A DNA stretch of 64,000 nt, from positions 1 through 64,000 of the forward strand of contig JAFTFL010000015.1 in the NCBI GenBank assembly GCA_017449525.1, read 5' to 3'. The position numbers were made by a program, and so were the translations under genes. Positions 7,344 to 43,694 of the stretch are shown here, in pieces. Source of the stretch: Bacteroidales bacterium (lineage in GTDB: Bacteria; Bacteroidota; Bacteroidia; Bacteroidales; P3). Below the pieces are notes generated by a model. It did no database searches and was not told the DNA's origin. It worked only from the letters and a program-made list of their open reading frames with translations. The first letter of the stretch is position 1. Each line of letters starts with the position of its first letter.

Positions 7344-9578
7344 TTATTCGGCTGGTGCTTCGGCTGCTGCCTCTTGCACGACGGCTGTCGTGTCGGCTGC
7401 AGCGGCGCGGTGGGTGCTCAGCCCGTAGCGTTCCAGCTTGCCAGTGAAGAAGAGGAAGAAGAATACTATTATGAGAATGAGTAGTATCCAGCGCAGCCAC
7501 CTCTTCCATGCTGGGGTGCGATCGGCAAACGGGTCATTGGTCTTCAGCTTTGGATACTTGGCCAGCGAGGTGAGTGTGGCACCAAAGCGGGTGTTGACCA
7601 GCACGTGGGCGTTGATGGCCCAGCCGTTGGCATTGAGGATGGGACCCAGATTGCGCTTGCGCAACTTGAGCCAAGCAAGGAGCATGGACGGACCGCTGAT
7701 GATGACCACTATTGCGCCAATGAGCAGGATGATGTTGTACCACTTGGTGGTAACAAAACCGCCTAAGGAGGCAAGGGCTCCGCCTATAGCACCTAAGGCC
7801 AAGCCTATGGCAGCAAAGATACCAGAGAACTTGGCTATGTCGAACATCTGTGCCTTCTTCTCTTCTGCGGTGGCGGCACCCCCTTCGGGCTTGGTCGTGA
7901 GGTTGGTGCTTGCAGTGTCGGCCTTGGCCGTCATTTCTTCAAACTGTTTGCTCTCCTTCTCTGCAGCGTTCTTGGTTATTTTGTCGGTAATCCAATTGCC
8001 CAGTTTGCGGTAGGGGCTCCAGAAGGCCTGGCGCACGCTAATCGGGTTGTCTATAATCTTGGTTACTACGGCATCGTAGTCGTTGCCTGCGCGGTCGTAG
8101 AAGAGGGCGTTCTGGCCTTCGCGCAGTCCGTAGACGTCGCCGTCGGTCAGTGCTGCCACAATGTCCATTTCGGTGGCCGTGGTCTTGGATACGCAGTGGC
8201 AATAGATGAGGTACATGCCGCTCAGGCCTGCCGAGGCCAACTGCTTGCCCATGTCGTTCACTCGAATACAGAGGTTGCAGCAACGCTGGTCGATGTAGAG
8301 CTGGCCAGCCTGGAAGATGGCCTGCTGGTTGACATCGGGTGAATAGAAATCGGTGAAGATAACATAGTTGCGCAGTAAACGGTAGAAGTCGCGATAGAGA
8401 TACATCAACTTGTCCACGTTGTTGATGGAGTCGGCTTCGGCCGCTAAGGCTTTGTCCTGCTCCACCAGGGCAAGGAGGTCGGCCTTGTGCCCTTCGGTGG
8501 CCATTTCGCTGATGGTGTCGTAGCCCAGCGACTCGACCGAGGTGCCTTTCTTGGCTGCACACCAGGCGGCATAGGCTTCAAATTTTGCTATGATGCCGTT
8601 CCATTCGGCTTCGCTGATGCTGTCGGCCGAGGGGAAGTCCACATCGAGGACGAGGCTCTTGAGCTGCGCAAAGGCGGCTTGCCATGCGGGGTTGATGGGG
8701 CCACGCAGTGGCAGACGTGCCTCTTTGGTGGGGCGAGCCAAGGGGTAGGATGCTATTTCGTCGGTGCAGGCGGTGAGCATGCCCGAGCCGATGGCCGATA
8801 CTTTCTCAACACTCACGTCGAGTGCATCGGTGCACTGCTCGTCAAAGGCCACGAGGTTGCAGCGCATGAAGTAGTCGGCTATCTTGTCGCGCATGGCCTG
8901 GCAAGCCTCGTAGGCTGTGGCCGTGTTGTCGCCGTAGGGTGCCATGGTGCTGCCGTCGGCACTGTCGTGCCACTCCTTGTAGTCGGCTATGGCAGCATAG
9001 AAGGCTTCGATGCGGTCTGCATCGACACCTTCGTCGCCGCTGCGGTCGGTTACGGTGCCTTGGGTGCTCATAATGGCCTCAATCTCGGCGCGCAGGGCCT
9101 CGTTGTCGGCAGTGGCGGGGGTGATGATGCCATCGCCGTTGAAGCGGGTCTGGGCGAAGATGGCTATCCGGTCCGAAGTGTCGGCTATGGAGATGCTGTC
9201 TTTATCTTGCTTTAGGTTGGCCAAAATTTGCTTGGCAGAACTGAGCAGCGCGCGTCCTTCCTCTGATTCGGAGTTGAAGTCGCTGAGCTTGATGCTGTCC
9301 TCTCCCTTAAGGAGCAGGGCGGGGTCGCGCAACACTTTGGTGAGCCATTGCGAAGCGGCCACTATCTCATCCACCCGTATCTTGCCGTCGCTGTCTGTGT
9401 CGAGCAGGGCGAGGGTGTGGTTGTCTATTTCCAATCCTTGTGCTGGGCAGCTCAGCACGGTCCATAGTTTTTGGTCGAGCTCGCCGAGGTGTGCGATGTC
9501 GTCGCCCGAAGCAATGTTGACGCGCGTTACACCGCCTACCGAGCAATACTTCCAGTTGTGTTTACCTTTTGTTGCCAT
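7344..9578 (-). CDS. EF-hand containing membrane protein, 744 aa
   Basis: The product begins MATKGKHNWKYC and has a canonical 12-residue EF-hand loop at residues 60-71 (DTDSDGKIRVDE), plus a weaker one around RFNGDGIITPATAD. A long helical, acidic soluble region follows. Near the C terminus there are hydrophobic segments: an FAAIGLALGAIGGALASLGG stretch, an NIILLIGAIVVIISGPSMLL stretch and a WILLILIIVFFFLFFTG stretch. An Ala-rich tail follows. It is probably an inner-membrane protein with a calcium-responsive cytoplasmic or periplasmic domain. The frame is open to 9740, but the promoter at 9627-9634 supports 9578. It is the first gene of the PqqD/kinase/S26-VanZ operon. The function is unknown. 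Confidence 0.8.
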   Translation of the reverse strand: MATKGKHNWKYCSVGGVTRVNIASGDDIAHLGELDQKLWTVLSCPAQGLEIDNHTLALLDTDSDGKIRVDEIVAASQWLTKVLRDPALLLKGEDSIKLSDFNSESEEGRALLSSAKQILANLKQDKDSISIADTSDRIAIFAQTRFNGDGIITPATADNEALRAEIEAIMSTQGTVTDRSGDEGVDADRIEAFYAAIADYKEWHDSADGSTMAPYGDNTATAYEACQAMRDKIADYFMRCNLVAFDEQCTDALDVSVEKVSAIGSGMLTACTDEIASYPLARPTKEARLPLRGPINPAWQAAFAQLKSLVLDVDFPSADSISEAEWNGIIAKFEAYAAWCAAKKGTSVESLGYDTISEMATEGHKADLLALVEQDKALAAEADSINNVDKLMYLYRDFYRLLRNYVIFTDFYSPDVNQQAIFQAGQLYIDQRCCNLCIRVNDMGKQLASAGLSGMYLIYCHCVSKTTATEMDIVAALTDGDVYGLREGQNALFYDRAGNDYDAVVTKIIDNPISVRQAFWSPYRKLGNWITDKITKNAAEKESKQFEEMTAKADTASTNLTTKPEGGAATAEEKKAQMFDIAKFSGIFAAIGLALGAIGGALASLGGFVTTKWYNIILLIGAIVVIISGPSMLLAWLKLRKRNLGPILNANGWAINAHVLVNTRFGATLTSLAKYPKLKTNDPFADRTPAWKRWLRWILLILIIVFFFLFFTGKLERYGLSTHRAAAADTTAVVQEAAAEAPAE

Positions 9579-9634: not shown

Positions 9635-9733
9635 CGATAATTTTCTCAGAAGACCTAATCGGTGCGGCGCAGGGCGTGGCGCGGTGCTGATGTAGTCCTG
9701 ATGCAGGACGGGGTAGGCTCGAGAGCAGGAGAG

Positions 9734-9934
9734 GCCACACGGAGGGGGCGTTGTGCGGCGCAGGGCGAGGCCGTGCGGCATCAAGGGCTATGCCGTACAG
9801 AACAGCCCTCTTTGCTGTGCGGCATGGGCTCCGCTGCCGTACGGCATGCGAAGGCTACAACAGGCAGAGTGATAGGAATATGGCACTGCTGATGGTCGGA
9901 TGCTGTACGGCAACACCCCGTGGTGCCGTACGGC
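9734..9934. repeat. GCCGTACGGC array A, 22-bp lattice
   Basis: Copies of the palindrome GCCGTACGGC or close variants start at 9770 (GCCGTGCGGC), 9792 (GCCGTACAGA), 9814 (GCTGTGCGGC), 9836 (perfect), 9902 (GCTGTACGGC) and 9925 (perfect). The steps are 22, 22, 22, 66 and 23 bp. Degenerate matches lie at 9734 and 9750. The bases between copies are not conserved. It lies downstream (minus strand) of the TACCTTTG box at 10057-10064. No credible coding frame spans it. Confidence 0.85.
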
Positions 9935-21571: not shown

Positions 21572-21735
21572 GCTGTACGGCTGCTTGCTCTCCGCCGTGC
21601 GGAAGGTGGGTTGAATGACTTGGTGGGTCTTCATTTTCATGTTGTTGAAGAGGAAATATGCCGTACGGCATCGGGCCGTAGGCTGTTGGGCACGGGCTCA
21701 GATGCCGTACGGCGTGCCCCCTCTGTCAGTACGGC
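21572..21735. repeat. GCCGTACGGC array C, 22-bp lattice
   Basis: Copies start at 21572 (GCTGTACGGC), 21594 (GCCGTGCGGA), 21660 (perfect), 21682 (GCTGTTGGGC, weak), 21704 (perfect) and 21726 (TCAGTACGGC). The steps are 22, 66, 22, 22 and 22 bp. It lies between an orphan promoter (21431) and the 3' end of the radical SAM gene (21839). Confidence 0.85.
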
Positions 21736-23771: not shown

Positions 23772-23781
23772 GCCGTACGGC
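23772..23781. repeat. Single perfect GCCGTACGGC upstream of a secreted-protein gene
   Basis: One perfect palindrome lies 26 bp upstream of the ATG at 23808, in the intergenic gap between two divergent genes. No phased partners are visible at 22-bp offsets. Confidence 0.6.
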
Positions 23782-25190: not shown

Positions 25191-26294
25191 CTATTTCTTA
25201 GAAGTGCGTGTGGTTTTCCTTGGAGCGGGCGCGTTATTGGACTTCACCTCGGCGCTCTTGGCCGTTCTGGAAGAACGTGTTTTCTTTGGGGCTGGAGTCT
25301 CGGCGGCCAACTCCTCGGTAGCCTTGGCTGTTCTGGAAGAACGTGTTTTCTTTGGATCTGAAGCCTCGGCAGTCAACTCCTCGGAAGCCTTAGTTGTTCT
25401 GGAAGAACGTGTTTTCTTTGGGGCTGGAGTCTCGGCGGTCAACTCCTCGGTAGCCTTAGTTGTTTTGGGAGAACGTGTTTTCTTTGGAGTAAGAGGCTCC
25501 ATGGTCTGAGTGGAGATATCCTCAGTTTGCACGACTTGAGCCTTCTTGTTGGCCACTTTCTTGGTGGCTTTGGGTGCAGGAGTGTCCTTTTCGGACGAGG
25601 ACTTGGAATTTGTTTCTGCAGAGGTGGTGGGGGTGGATTCGTTCTTTTGGGGAACCGATGCCTTTTTACGCGAGGGGCGCTTCCCAGCAGAAATCTCCTG
25701 AATGTCGTTCATCATCTCCTCGGCCGACAGCAGGCCATCGGCTATGACATCGTCGTCAATGTTCATCAGTTCCTCGCTCGAGGGTTCCTCTTCCTCGGCA
25801 TCGTCTGCACTGCCGTCGTCGGTGTAGTTGTCGAAGTCCTCTTCATCTTCCTCGCCGTCGTCGGTCAGACTCTTCTTTAAATCCTCATTGGACATTTCGA
25901 AATTGTCAACGGGAGTCTCGTCGGGGAACACGTCGTCGTAGGCTCCATGCTTAAGGGAACCGACCTTGTGCTGCGCAGAGCCCTCTTCTTTTTCGATGGC
26001 CTCCGACAACGGAGCATAGTCATCGTTCTCCTTGTTGTCATCGGAATAGTTGTCCTTCTCGAGGTACTCTTCCACCATGCCCGTATCAATTTTGACATCG
26101 AACTTGACCATGTAGGCCACCTCCTCTGTGTCAAGAGGAACCACGAAGATGGGCTCTCCGTTGGGTTTTATCGTTTTCTGTATGTAGTCCGAGTACCCGT
26201 CTGGATACTGTTCCTTGAAGAGCTCACGCAGTTCGTCAGTAAGGTTCTTATAGCTGATAATTAGATTTTTCTTGTGAGTTTTGTTGCGTATCAT
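25191..26294 (-). CDS. Conserved protein with acidic middle and histone-H1-like repeat tail
   Basis: The 367-residue product has three zones. Residues 1-85 form a folded domain (NLIISYKNLTDELRELFKEQ, IFVVPLDTEEVAYMVKFDVK) conserved in Bacteroidetes hypothetical proteins. Residues 90-200 are very acidic (EEDEEDFDNYTDDGSADDAEE). The tail from about residue 270 carries near-identical 22-residue repeats with core PKKTRSSRTTKA and ending EELTAE, then a Lys/Arg end. The tail resembles histone-H1-like or KTR-rich nucleoid tails and may bind DNA or RNA. The promoter at 26312-26319 gives a very short leader. The function is unknown. Confidence 0.75.
   Translation of the reverse strand: MIRNKTHKKNLIISYKNLTDELRELFKEQYPDGYSDYIQKTIKPNGEPIFVVPLDTEEVAYMVKFDVKIDTGMVEEYLEKDNYSDDNKENDDYAPLSEAIEKEEGSAQHKVGSLKHGAYDDVFPDETPVDNFEMSNEDLKKSLTDDGEEDEEDFDNYTDDGSADDAEEEEPSSEELMNIDDDVIADGLLSAEEMMNDIQEISAGKRPSRKKASVPQKNESTPTTSAETNSKSSSEKDTPAPKATKKVANKKAQVVQTEDISTQTMEPLTPKKTRSPKTTKATEELTAETPAPKKTRSSRTTKASEELTAEASDPKKTRSSRTAKATEELAAETPAPKKTRSSRTAKSAEVKSNNAPAPRKTTRTSKK
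25194..25493. repeat. 66-bp in-frame tandem repeats encoding the basic tail
   Basis: About four tandem units of 66 bp (22 codons) encode the PKKTRSSRT repeats. They are similar at the DNA level, so they probably expand and contract by recombination or slippage. Confidence 0.75.
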
Positions 26295-31507: not shown

Positions 31508-31672
31508 GGCGTACGGCACGTAGGTATTGTGCTGTACGGCGTCGGTGTGTCGTCCGTGCTTTTCTGTTGGCGTTCATCTTGTTGTGCACGGTTGAAGCCG
31601 TACGGCATGGCCTCATGCACCGCACGACGTGTCCACAGGTTCCGTACGGTGTCGAGCCGTGTGCCGCAGGGC
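31508..31672. repeat. GCCGTACGGC array B, 22-bp lattice
   Basis: Copies start at 31508 (GGCGTACGGC), 31531 (GCTGTACGGC), 31553 (TCCGTGCTTT, weak), 31597 (perfect), 31619 (ACCGCACGAC), 31641 (TCCGTACGGT) and 31663 (GCCGCAGGGC). The steps are 23, 22, 44, 22, 22 and 22 bp. There is no coding frame of note. It sits between the distal promoter (31402) and the proximal promoter (31755) of the small lipoprotein gene. Confidence 0.85.
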
Positions 31673-36700: not shown

Positions 36701-36832
36701 TTGTCAAGGTCTCAGCTTTACATTGTCAAGGTCTCAGCTTTACGTTGTCAAGGTCTCAGCTTGACATTGTCAAGGTCTCGACTTTACATTGTCAAGGTCT
36801 CGACTTTACATTGTCGAAGTCTCGGCTTGCAG
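36701..36832. repeat. Tandem array 1: six 22-bp units
   Basis: Units start at 36701, 36723, 36745, 36767, 36789 and 36811, all exactly 22 bp. The core is TTGTCAAGGTCTCAGCTTTA, with AG to GA changes in later copies; the last copy is diverged. A 22-bp unit breaks any reading frame, so the array is non-coding. Confidence 0.93.
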
Positions 36833-36915
36833 AAGAGGGTTTTTGATGCTTGCAGAAGAGGGTTTTTGATGCTTGCAGAGGAGGACTTTTTGATGCTTGC
36901 AGAGGAGGGCTTGAT
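36825..36915. repeat. Tandem array 2: four 21-24-bp units
   Basis: Units start at 36825, 36848, 36871 and 36895, with core GCTTGCAGAAGAGGGTTTTT. The lengths are 23, 23, 24 and 21 bp. The unit sequence is unrelated to array 1, which it overlaps by a few bases. Confidence 0.9.
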
Positions 36916-37000
36916 GTAGGTGTAGTCCGACGGAGGGTCAGAGGCAGCACTCGTCGCGTGCCGCACTTGCTCTACGGATGACCGCCGCCTCCCCAAAATG

Positions 37001-37150
37001 GCATGTGCATGTCCATCTTGGGGAATGTGCATGTCCATTTTGGGGATGTGCATGTGCATCTTCGGAGCATGTGCATGTCCATCTTTGAGGATGCGCATGT
37101 CCATTTTGGGGCATGTGCATGCCCATCTTCGGACGCGCATGTACCGTTCC
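37001..37150. repeat. Tandem array 3: about seven units of about 22 bp
   Basis: The core ATGTGCATGTCCAT recurs at 37003, 37025, 37046, 37069, 37091 and 37113, with a decayed copy near 37135. Units end in a variable TTTTGGGG or CTTCGG block. The steps are 22, 21, 23, 22, 22 and about 22 bp. It is unrelated in sequence to arrays 1 and 2. Confidence 0.88.
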
Positions 37151-43517: not shown

Positions 43518-43694
43518 GCCGTAGGGGTAGAGGAGTGGATGCCGTACGGATGGGACATTGGCGGCCTTGGGTTGGAGAGTGTATGCCGTACGGCATGGTG
43601 GTGATATAACAAGATGAATGGCAGTGTGGTAGTGGTGGATGAATGTGGGAGCTGTGCGGCATGTGTGGCTACGCCGTACGGCCTGGCGTATGGC
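43518..43694. repeat. GCCGTACGGC array D, 22-bp lattice
   Basis: Copies start at 43518 (GCCGTAGGGG), 43541 (GCCGTACGGA), 43585 (perfect), 43651 (GCTGTGCGGC), 43673 (perfect) and 43685 (GGCGTATGGC, out of phase). The main steps are 23, 44, 66 and 22 bp. It lies between the distal promoter at 43850 and the proximal promoter at 43470 of the TlpA-like gene. Confidence 0.85.

What the first reader, a model, noticed from the sequence alone, without database searches (positions are those of the whole stretch)
9734..9934. GCCGTACGGC palindromes on a strict 22-bp lattice (locus A) and the wider class
Six copies of a 10-bp palindrome fall at steps of 22, 22, 22, 66 and 23 bp, with unconserved bases between. 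Similar lattices occur at three other loci, and other words sit on the same 22-bp period elsewhere in the window. I counted eight perfect GCCGTACGGC copies by eye, all intergenic; chance in 64 kb is well below one. A period of two helical turns would place all sites on one face of DNA. In RNA, neighbouring copies could pair into 10-bp stems with 12-nt loops. I know no described repeat family with a fixed period but a changing core.
Basis: partly seen in the sequence, partly recalled or inferred. Interest (0 to 1): 0.9.

Follow-up and report, generated by a model that had tools for sequence, protein, structure and literature searches.

The report
Evenly spaced helically phased DNA-site arrays
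This uncultured gut-type bacterium carries a short palindromic DNA word in fixed-layout arrays sitting between genes at remarkably even distances along the chromosome, related species have similar arrays with different words, and the pattern looks like docking sites for an unknown protein that organises the chromosome.

Summary
The lattice is real and larger than claimed. GCCGTACGGC occurs 134 times in the genome against 3 for the reversed control; 36 congeners have 0-7. In the 853 kb examined (a third of the genome), 43 of 46 copies are intergenic and 41 of 46 lie in 39 copies of one stereotyped element. That element has eight slots about 22 bp apart: four palindromes, a different word (YAACAAGnTG), a weak slot, then two palindromes. 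Spacers are nearly random; no terminal repeats were seen. Locus A is one copy; the window holds four. Sites show no strand bias and no compensatory pairing, which argues against RNA hairpins and for duplex-DNA sites of a symmetric protein. Congeners carry intergenic arrays on an 11/22-bp period with other words. Arrays are evenly spaced in all five species tested: none closer than 5 kb. Best explanation: chromosome-organising protein-docking arrays whose word co-evolves with an unidentified reader. The main rival is a mobile element with target immunity. Nothing described that I found matches exactly; BrickBuilt of Porphyromonas gingivalis (23-bp intergenic repeats) and Noc-binding sites are closest. 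Reader and function are inferred, not shown.

The parts
9770..9934 (+). Element 1 (locus A). A-sites 9770, 9792, 9814, 9836; slot 5 word CAACAGGCAG 9858-9867; slot 6 9880-9889; A-sites 9902, 9925
21572..21735 (-). Element 2, reverse orientation. A-sites on + coordinates 21726, 21704, 21682 (weak), 21660; slot 5 (CAACAACATG on - strand) about 21638; A-sites 21594, 21572
31508..31672 (-). Element 3, reverse orientation. A-sites 31663, 31641, 31619 (weak), 31597; slot 5 (CAACAAGATG on - strand) about 31575; A-sites 31531, 31508
43518..43682 (+). Element 4. A-sites 43518, 43541, 43563 (weak), 43585; slot 5 TAACAAGATG about 43607; A-sites 43651, 43673
23772..23781 (.). Lone perfect GCCGTACGGC, outside any array, 6 bp inside a predicted start codon
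10137..11943 (+). lysS-like gene (lysyl-tRNA synthetase; name recalled, not from a family search) downstream of element 1; its relatives were used to place the organism. Divergent predicted gene 7344-9578 lies on the other side

Best explanation
Each array is a docking platform for a sequence-specific DNA-binding protein. SHOWN: 10-bp palindromic sites stand on a 22-bp lattice in a fixed 4+1+1+2 order; they are conserved while spacers are nearly random; they lie between genes; arrays are kept at least 5-7 kb apart and evenly along the stretches examined; related species have arrays of the same or half period with other words. INFERRED: a symmetric (dimeric) protein reads the palindrome, several dimers line up about every two helical turns into one nucleoprotein complex, slot 5 seats a partner or an oriented contact, and complexes roughly every 10-20 kb anchor, bridge or insulate the chromosome (nucleoid organisation, topological-domain borders or nucleoid occlusion). 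The word drifts together with the protein's reading surface, so each species has its own.
For: Discrete family: 39 elements score 49-110, the next two hits 24-25, simulated sequence at most 9.7. Slot 4 GTAC is invariant in 39 of 39 (the elements were picked with a site profile, which favours conserved sites somewhat). Core pairwise identity 0.68 against spacers 0.34 and flanks 0.26-0.28. Symmetric substitutions and no covariation point to dsDNA recognition by a dimer. Even spacing: own genome 33 intervals, minimum 6659, CV 0.55, 0 under 5 kb against 7.4 expected; G029 32 intervals, minimum 5105, CV 0.44, 0 against 10-12 expected (2000 random-IGR draws, P at most 0.0005). With IGR type matched: own P(count) 0.008 or 0.0008 and P(min) 0.0004 or 0 of 5000; G029 0 of 5000. 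Also G023, G015 and G016: P(min) 0.0006, 0.0038, 0.0084; 0 under 7 kb against 4.4, 3.0 and 1.3 expected. Words are private: each of 7 words is most frequent in its own species among 6 genomes. In G029 placement roughly follows intergenic length.
Against: No reader protein found: ParB_N has one match in the own genome, two in G029 (the second weak, E 1.6e-6) and one in each of four others; HU (recalled as not sequence-specific) gives no lead. G029 copies look near-identical by eye, which suggests recent spread. In the own genome 25 of 39 elements lie in divergent intergenic regions that hold 20% of other intergenic bases (P 1.6e-9), which suits gene regulation too. Position is only weakly conserved between own and G029: upstream 5 of 15 against 10 of 85 (one-sided P 0.047), downstream 0 of 2 against 10 of 98. 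The reversed control word, itself a palindrome, is also common in some congeners (0-41 copies). No binding or conformation data.
Confidence: 0.45

Rival explanations
1. A non-autonomous mobile repeat (MITE-like) whose transposase binds subterminal 11/22-bp sites; target immunity or selection against dense insertion keeps copies apart.
For: G029 copies look near-identical by eye at scattered loci and form inverted repeats. BrickBuilt, the nearest described intergenic 23-bp repeat, is a MITE with IS5-type ends and duplications. Immunity would give even spacing. That Mu/Tn7-type transposases bind about 22-bp end sites is recalled.
Against: Own-genome copies share sites but hardly spacers and not flanks and show no terminal repeats. 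PF01797 has 0 matches in the own genome while present in many congeners. PF09299 0 of 8, but that search's control was silent, so it shows little.
Confidence: 0.25
2. Upstream operator arrays of a global transcription regulator acting on divergent genes.
For: 25 of 39 own elements are in divergent intergenic regions and 1 in a convergent one; slot 5 orients the element.
Against: In G029 all four intergenic types are used roughly in proportion to their length (17 divergent, 9 and 7 tandem, 6 convergent of 39 with both neighbours). A regulon would not need even spacing. In locus A the array lies between, not over, the two promoter-like TTTGC motifs (motif recalled; read directly).
Confidence: 0.15
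3. Transcribed RNA hairpins (termination, stability or small RNA).
For: Palindromes give a fold z of about -3 (20 of 39 elements folded); G029 arrays are long inverted repeats.
Against: The z is the same on both strands (-2.91 and -3.00). No wobble bias, no covariation. No credible Rfam match. Several congener arrays read as direct repeats only (G015, G016).
Confidence: 0.06
4. Neutral minisatellite expansion with a preferred unit near two helical turns, homogenised by recombination.
For: Intergenic arrays of period 21-23 with unrelated words occur in other Bacteroidales families and at 36701-37133 in the window.
Against: Does not explain conserved cores with randomised spacers, the 4+1+1+2 order at 39 loci, or even spacing.
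Confidence: 0.06

Closest known systems
BrickBuilt minisatellite/MITE of Porphyromonas gingivalis (PMC4596501: abstract, sections 5 and 9 and passages read)
   Same: Same order (recalled); intergenic only; about two-turn (23-bp) period; many dispersed copies; its authors found it in P. gingivalis and some P. gulae strains and report no BLASTn match outside P. gingivalis otherwise
   Different: Contiguous 23-bp units, variable number (1-22.8), leader and tail with IS5-like terminal repeats and duplications; 19 copies. Here a fixed slot number, palindromic cores with random spacers, no terminal repeats seen, even spacing
Noc-binding sites of Bacillus subtilis (PMC4331003, passages read)
   Same: About 70 discrete palindromic sites around most of the chromosome, bound by a dimer that oligomerises on DNA
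   Different: The passages describe discrete sites, no phased multi-slot element; no second ParB-type protein seen in the own genome
REP/BIME with RAYT (PMC2817692, search listing and passages read)
   Same: Extragenic, palindromic, often >100 copies per genome, species-specific word co-evolving with a protein
   Different: Longer palindromes with a GT(A/G)G head and a PF01797 transposase; own genome has 0 PF01797 matches and no such head is in the site consensus
MatP/matS and SlmA sites of E. coli (matS: abstract start of PMC3330122 in the listing; SlmA: listing and recalled)
   Same: Short sites repeated along part of a chromosome for nucleoid organisation
   Different: Single sites (recalled), macrodomain-specific; not lattices
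Plasmid iterons (recalled)
   Same: Direct sites about 22 bp apart
   Different: Located at one replication origin, not at dozens of intergenic loci

Membership tests
BrickBuilt / MITE | Terminal inverted repeats with flanking duplication | tested here: not met
   39 elements: no column above 0.46 bits from 120 to 3 bp left of slot 1; right of slot 8 none above 0.81, the highest being a partial ninth slot at alignment columns 190-193. Empty sites not available
BrickBuilt / MITE | Contiguous 23-nt units without spacers | tested here: not met
   10-bp cores, 12-nt spacers with 0.34 pairwise identity
BrickBuilt / MITE | Published unit sequence | tested here: not met
   0 of 393 Bacteroidales genomes incl.
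BrickBuilt / MITE | Intergenic location | tested here: met
   43 of 46 cores
REP/RAYT | Cognate PF01797 transposase in the genome | tested here: not met
   0 in G000 (94.65% complete); also 0 in congeners G006, G008, G009, G014 (26 genomes searched, 20 with a match)
Noc/NBS-type system | Palindromic dsDNA site at many chromosomal places | tested here: met
Noc/NBS-type system | ParB-like reader distinct from chromosomal ParB | tested here: not met
   One ParB_N match in G000, a draft of 94.65% completeness
Noc/NBS-type system | Sites absent near the terminus | not tested
   Draft of 26 contigs; origin and terminus not located
Structured RNA | Compensatory base changes | tested here: not met
   15 core pairs z -1.0 to 1.7; 21 spacer pairs, highest z 1.4, lowest not printed
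Helically phased protein array | Specific binding of a protein, cooperative along the lattice | not testable with these tools
   needs EMSA/footprinting

The most novel reading that the evidence does not exclude
A genus, and perhaps a wider part of Bacteroidales, uses evenly spaced multi-dimer docking arrays on a one- or two-turn lattice to partition the chromosome, and the recognition word is swapped wholesale between species as the reader protein diverges: a bacterial chromosome-organising code with rapid word turnover.
Probability: 0.35. Interest if true: 0.93.

Novelty: new variant of a known kind. Interest (0 to 1): 0.82.

Why it matters
My searches (listings only, and one search is the one aimed at Bacteroides chromosome organisation) showed no described site-specific chromosome-organising system in Bacteroidota; one listed paper on chromosome folding in intestinal bacteria (PMC10197239) was not read. 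If the mobile-element rival wins instead, it would be a clear genome-wide footprint of target immunity or spacing selection.

Tried and rejected
RNA hairpin model: wobble asymmetry, core covariation, spacer covariation and folding on both strands all negative or symmetric. The G029 arm-covariation test gave negative z (-1.8 to -2.8), but many of the 37 elements used have arms of unequal unit number, so the frames are not aligned and I draw nothing from it. A computed identity among G029 copies failed (no copy passed the length filter), so 'near-identical' there rests on reading. REP/RAYT: PF01797 absent from the own genome. Mu/Tn7-like transposase PF09299: 0 of 8 genomes but the control was silent too, so no conclusion. 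HU (PF00216): 6 matches own against 2-3 in five congeners, no link made. Phage and plasmid records: no match to locus A. Rfam: only two implausible miRNA hits below gathering score. BrickBuilt unit: 0 of 393 genomes.

Literature: nine searches; no paper describing the element was recognised among the listings. Absence from print is therefore limited to this open-access library and these terms.

Limits of the counts: own-genome work used 852.7 of 2530 kb: contigs C3 and C6 whole and 84-99% of C1, C2, C4 and C5, not a random sample. Genes were called with my own script. In one search, of 18 congener stretches of 9 kb or more (17 genomes), lag 11 was among the six strongest intergenic lags in 10; three shorter congener stretches and five shorter outgroup stretches were dropped, and pooled congener lag 11 ranked third after 18 and 9. 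One more congener stretch, G376, showed no lag-11 peak. G008 was too sparse (3 array regions) for a spacing test. Spacing in G023, G015 and G016 used intergenic-region starts, not array positions; the G023 list (12 regions, z >= 4) misses two word-bearing regions at about 28.7 and 39.5 kb seen. Several reciprocal-best pairs have only 22-31% identity and may not be orthologues.

Full report
WHAT IS THERE. The window lies on contig C3 of a 2.53-Mb, 26-contig draft of a Bacteroidales species; the closest lysS relatives (79-85% identity) are mostly rumen, horse and other animal-gut MAGs, one named Candidatus Colimorpha. GCCGTACGGC occurs 8 times perfectly in the window and 134 times in the genome against 3 for the reversed pattern. 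Thirty-six congeners have 0-7 copies and 24 other Bacteroidales have 0-6, so the word is amplified in this species alone among the 61 genomes searched. The reversed pattern is itself a palindrome and reaches 41 copies in one congener, so it is a fair control for this genome but not a neutral word in the genus.

ANATOMY. In 852.7 kb examined (about a third of the genome) there are 46 perfect cores, 43 intergenic (0.291 against 0.0043 per kb in predicted coding sequence), 41 of the 46 inside 39 copies of one element. The element has eight slots. Slots 1-4 and 7-8 are GCCGTACGGC variants, usually flanked by AT. Slot 5 is another word, YAACAAGnTGA. Slot 6 keeps mainly T-R. Of 273 steps 242 are 22 bp, 30 are 23 and one is 21. 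Elements occur in both orientations. Scores are bimodal (39 at 49-110, then 24-25; simulated sequence at most 9.7). Slot 4 GTAC is invariant in 39 of 39. Spacers are close to random (pairwise identity 0.34; 0.25 expected from base frequencies alone) and flanks at 0.26-0.28, while cores are at 0.68. No conserved ends were found beyond a partial ninth slot about 22 bp after slot 8.

DNA, NOT RNA. In 234 sites, substitutions that keep pairing in one strand's RNA (C>T, A>G) number 120 and the mirror class 107; mirror positions match (C3T 45, G8A 47). Sites of one element do not complement each other better than sites of different elements (15 pairs, z -1.0 to 1.7), and spacers do not either (highest z 1.4 of 21 pairs). 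Folding z-scores are equal on both strands (20 of 39 elements). This fits a palindrome read on duplex DNA by a symmetric protein.

OTHER SPECIES. In 80 kb each of five congeners (G029, G023, G016, G015, G008) the intergenic lag profile has 11 or 22 among the strongest lags. Units differ: CGATTGTTCTT in G029, GTTCTTCAGTA and CTACGGCCCCT-like in G023, CATAGACCTAC in G015, CGACCTTAATA in G016. Seven words counted in six genomes are each commonest in their own species. G029 has 41 elements in 466 kb, near-identical by eye, inverted repeats of 11-bp units around a short variable centre. A survey of 18 further congener stretches shows lag 11 among the top six lags in 10; it is not universal at that depth, and one more congener stretch (G376) shows none. 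Intergenic arrays of period 21-23 with other words appear in several other Bacteroidales families, and a 21-bp lag in the sister genus g26; even spacing was not tested there.

EVEN SPACING. Own genome: 33 within-contig intervals, 6.7-46.8 kb, none under 5 kb against 7.4 expected if the same number of intergenic regions is drawn by length. G029: 32 intervals, 5.1-23.7 kb, none under 5 kb against 10-12 expected. With intergenic type matched the result holds (own: P 0.008 for the count and 0.0004 for the minimum under length weighting; G029: none of 5000 draws). Unsupervised detection in G023, G015 and G016 gives P(min) 0.0006, 0.0038 and 0.0084. So all five species tested show it. Own elements favour divergent intergenic regions (25 of 39 against 20% of other intergenic bases); G029's roughly follow intergenic length.

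POSITION. Among 100 reciprocal best pairs between own and G029 stretches, 5 of 15 genes with an own array upstream also have a G029 array upstream, against 10 of 85 without (one-sided P 0.047); downstream it is 0 of 2 against 10 of 98. This is weak and confounded by intergenic length and by low-identity pairs.

MECHANISM. Conserved sites in random spacers mean that the sites, not the DNA copy, are what is kept; even spacing argues for a chromosome-scale role. The chief rival is a mobile repeat with target immunity, which the G029 copies and the BrickBuilt precedent (PMC4596501) support but which shared-site/unshared-spacer anatomy in the own genome and the lack of terminal repeats oppose. No reader was identified; ParB_N gives one match in the own genome.

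KNOWN KINDS. It is not BrickBuilt (terminal repeats, contiguous 23-bp units: not met), not REP/RAYT (no PF01797 in the own genome), and no Rfam family fits. It may work like Noc-binding sites (PMC4331003: about 70 palindromic sites around most of the chromosome) but no second ParB-like protein was found. I rate it a new variant of a known kind (dispersed intergenic palindromic repeats / chromosome-wide docking sites), with a real chance of being a separate kind.

Noticed in passing
36701-37133: Three adjoining tandem arrays with unrelated units of 22, 23 and 22/66 bp in one 813-bp intergenic region; not the GCCGTACGGC family.
   Followed up: partly
25257-25487: 66-bp unit repeated 3.5 times inside a predicted coding sequence (25191-26294): would be a 22-residue protein repeat, so its 66-bp lag is not part of the lattice.
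   Followed up: partly
L221:9498-9904: Roughly 20 imperfect 21-bp units (AGTTATTAATCATTNTGNNAA-like) in an intergenic region of another Bacteroidales family.
   Followed up: no
L234:8229-8297 and 9644-9750: 23-bp unit CTCACAATCTTGTCAATTTTTAT in two arrays 1.4 kb apart in yet another family, so the 5-kb rule is broken there.
   Followed up: no
L090:12153-12270: 22-bp intergenic array (GCAACAAGATTTCGCAACGGCC-like) in Bacteroides sp. 224.
   Followed up: no
L248:6049, 11711, 18270: Sister genus g26: related GAATCCATTTTTTC/GATTCAGAAAA-like words in three regions 5.7 and 6.6 kb apart on a 21-bp lag; the spacing rule may reach the family.
   Followed up: no
L023 upstream of lysS (before 6001): Long near-perfect inverted repeat of 11-bp units (ATATCAACGAT) in the lysS upstream region, the counterpart of locus A.
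   Followed up: partly
G000 against five congeners: Six HU-family (PF00216) matches in the own genome against 2-3 in five congeners.
   Followed up: no
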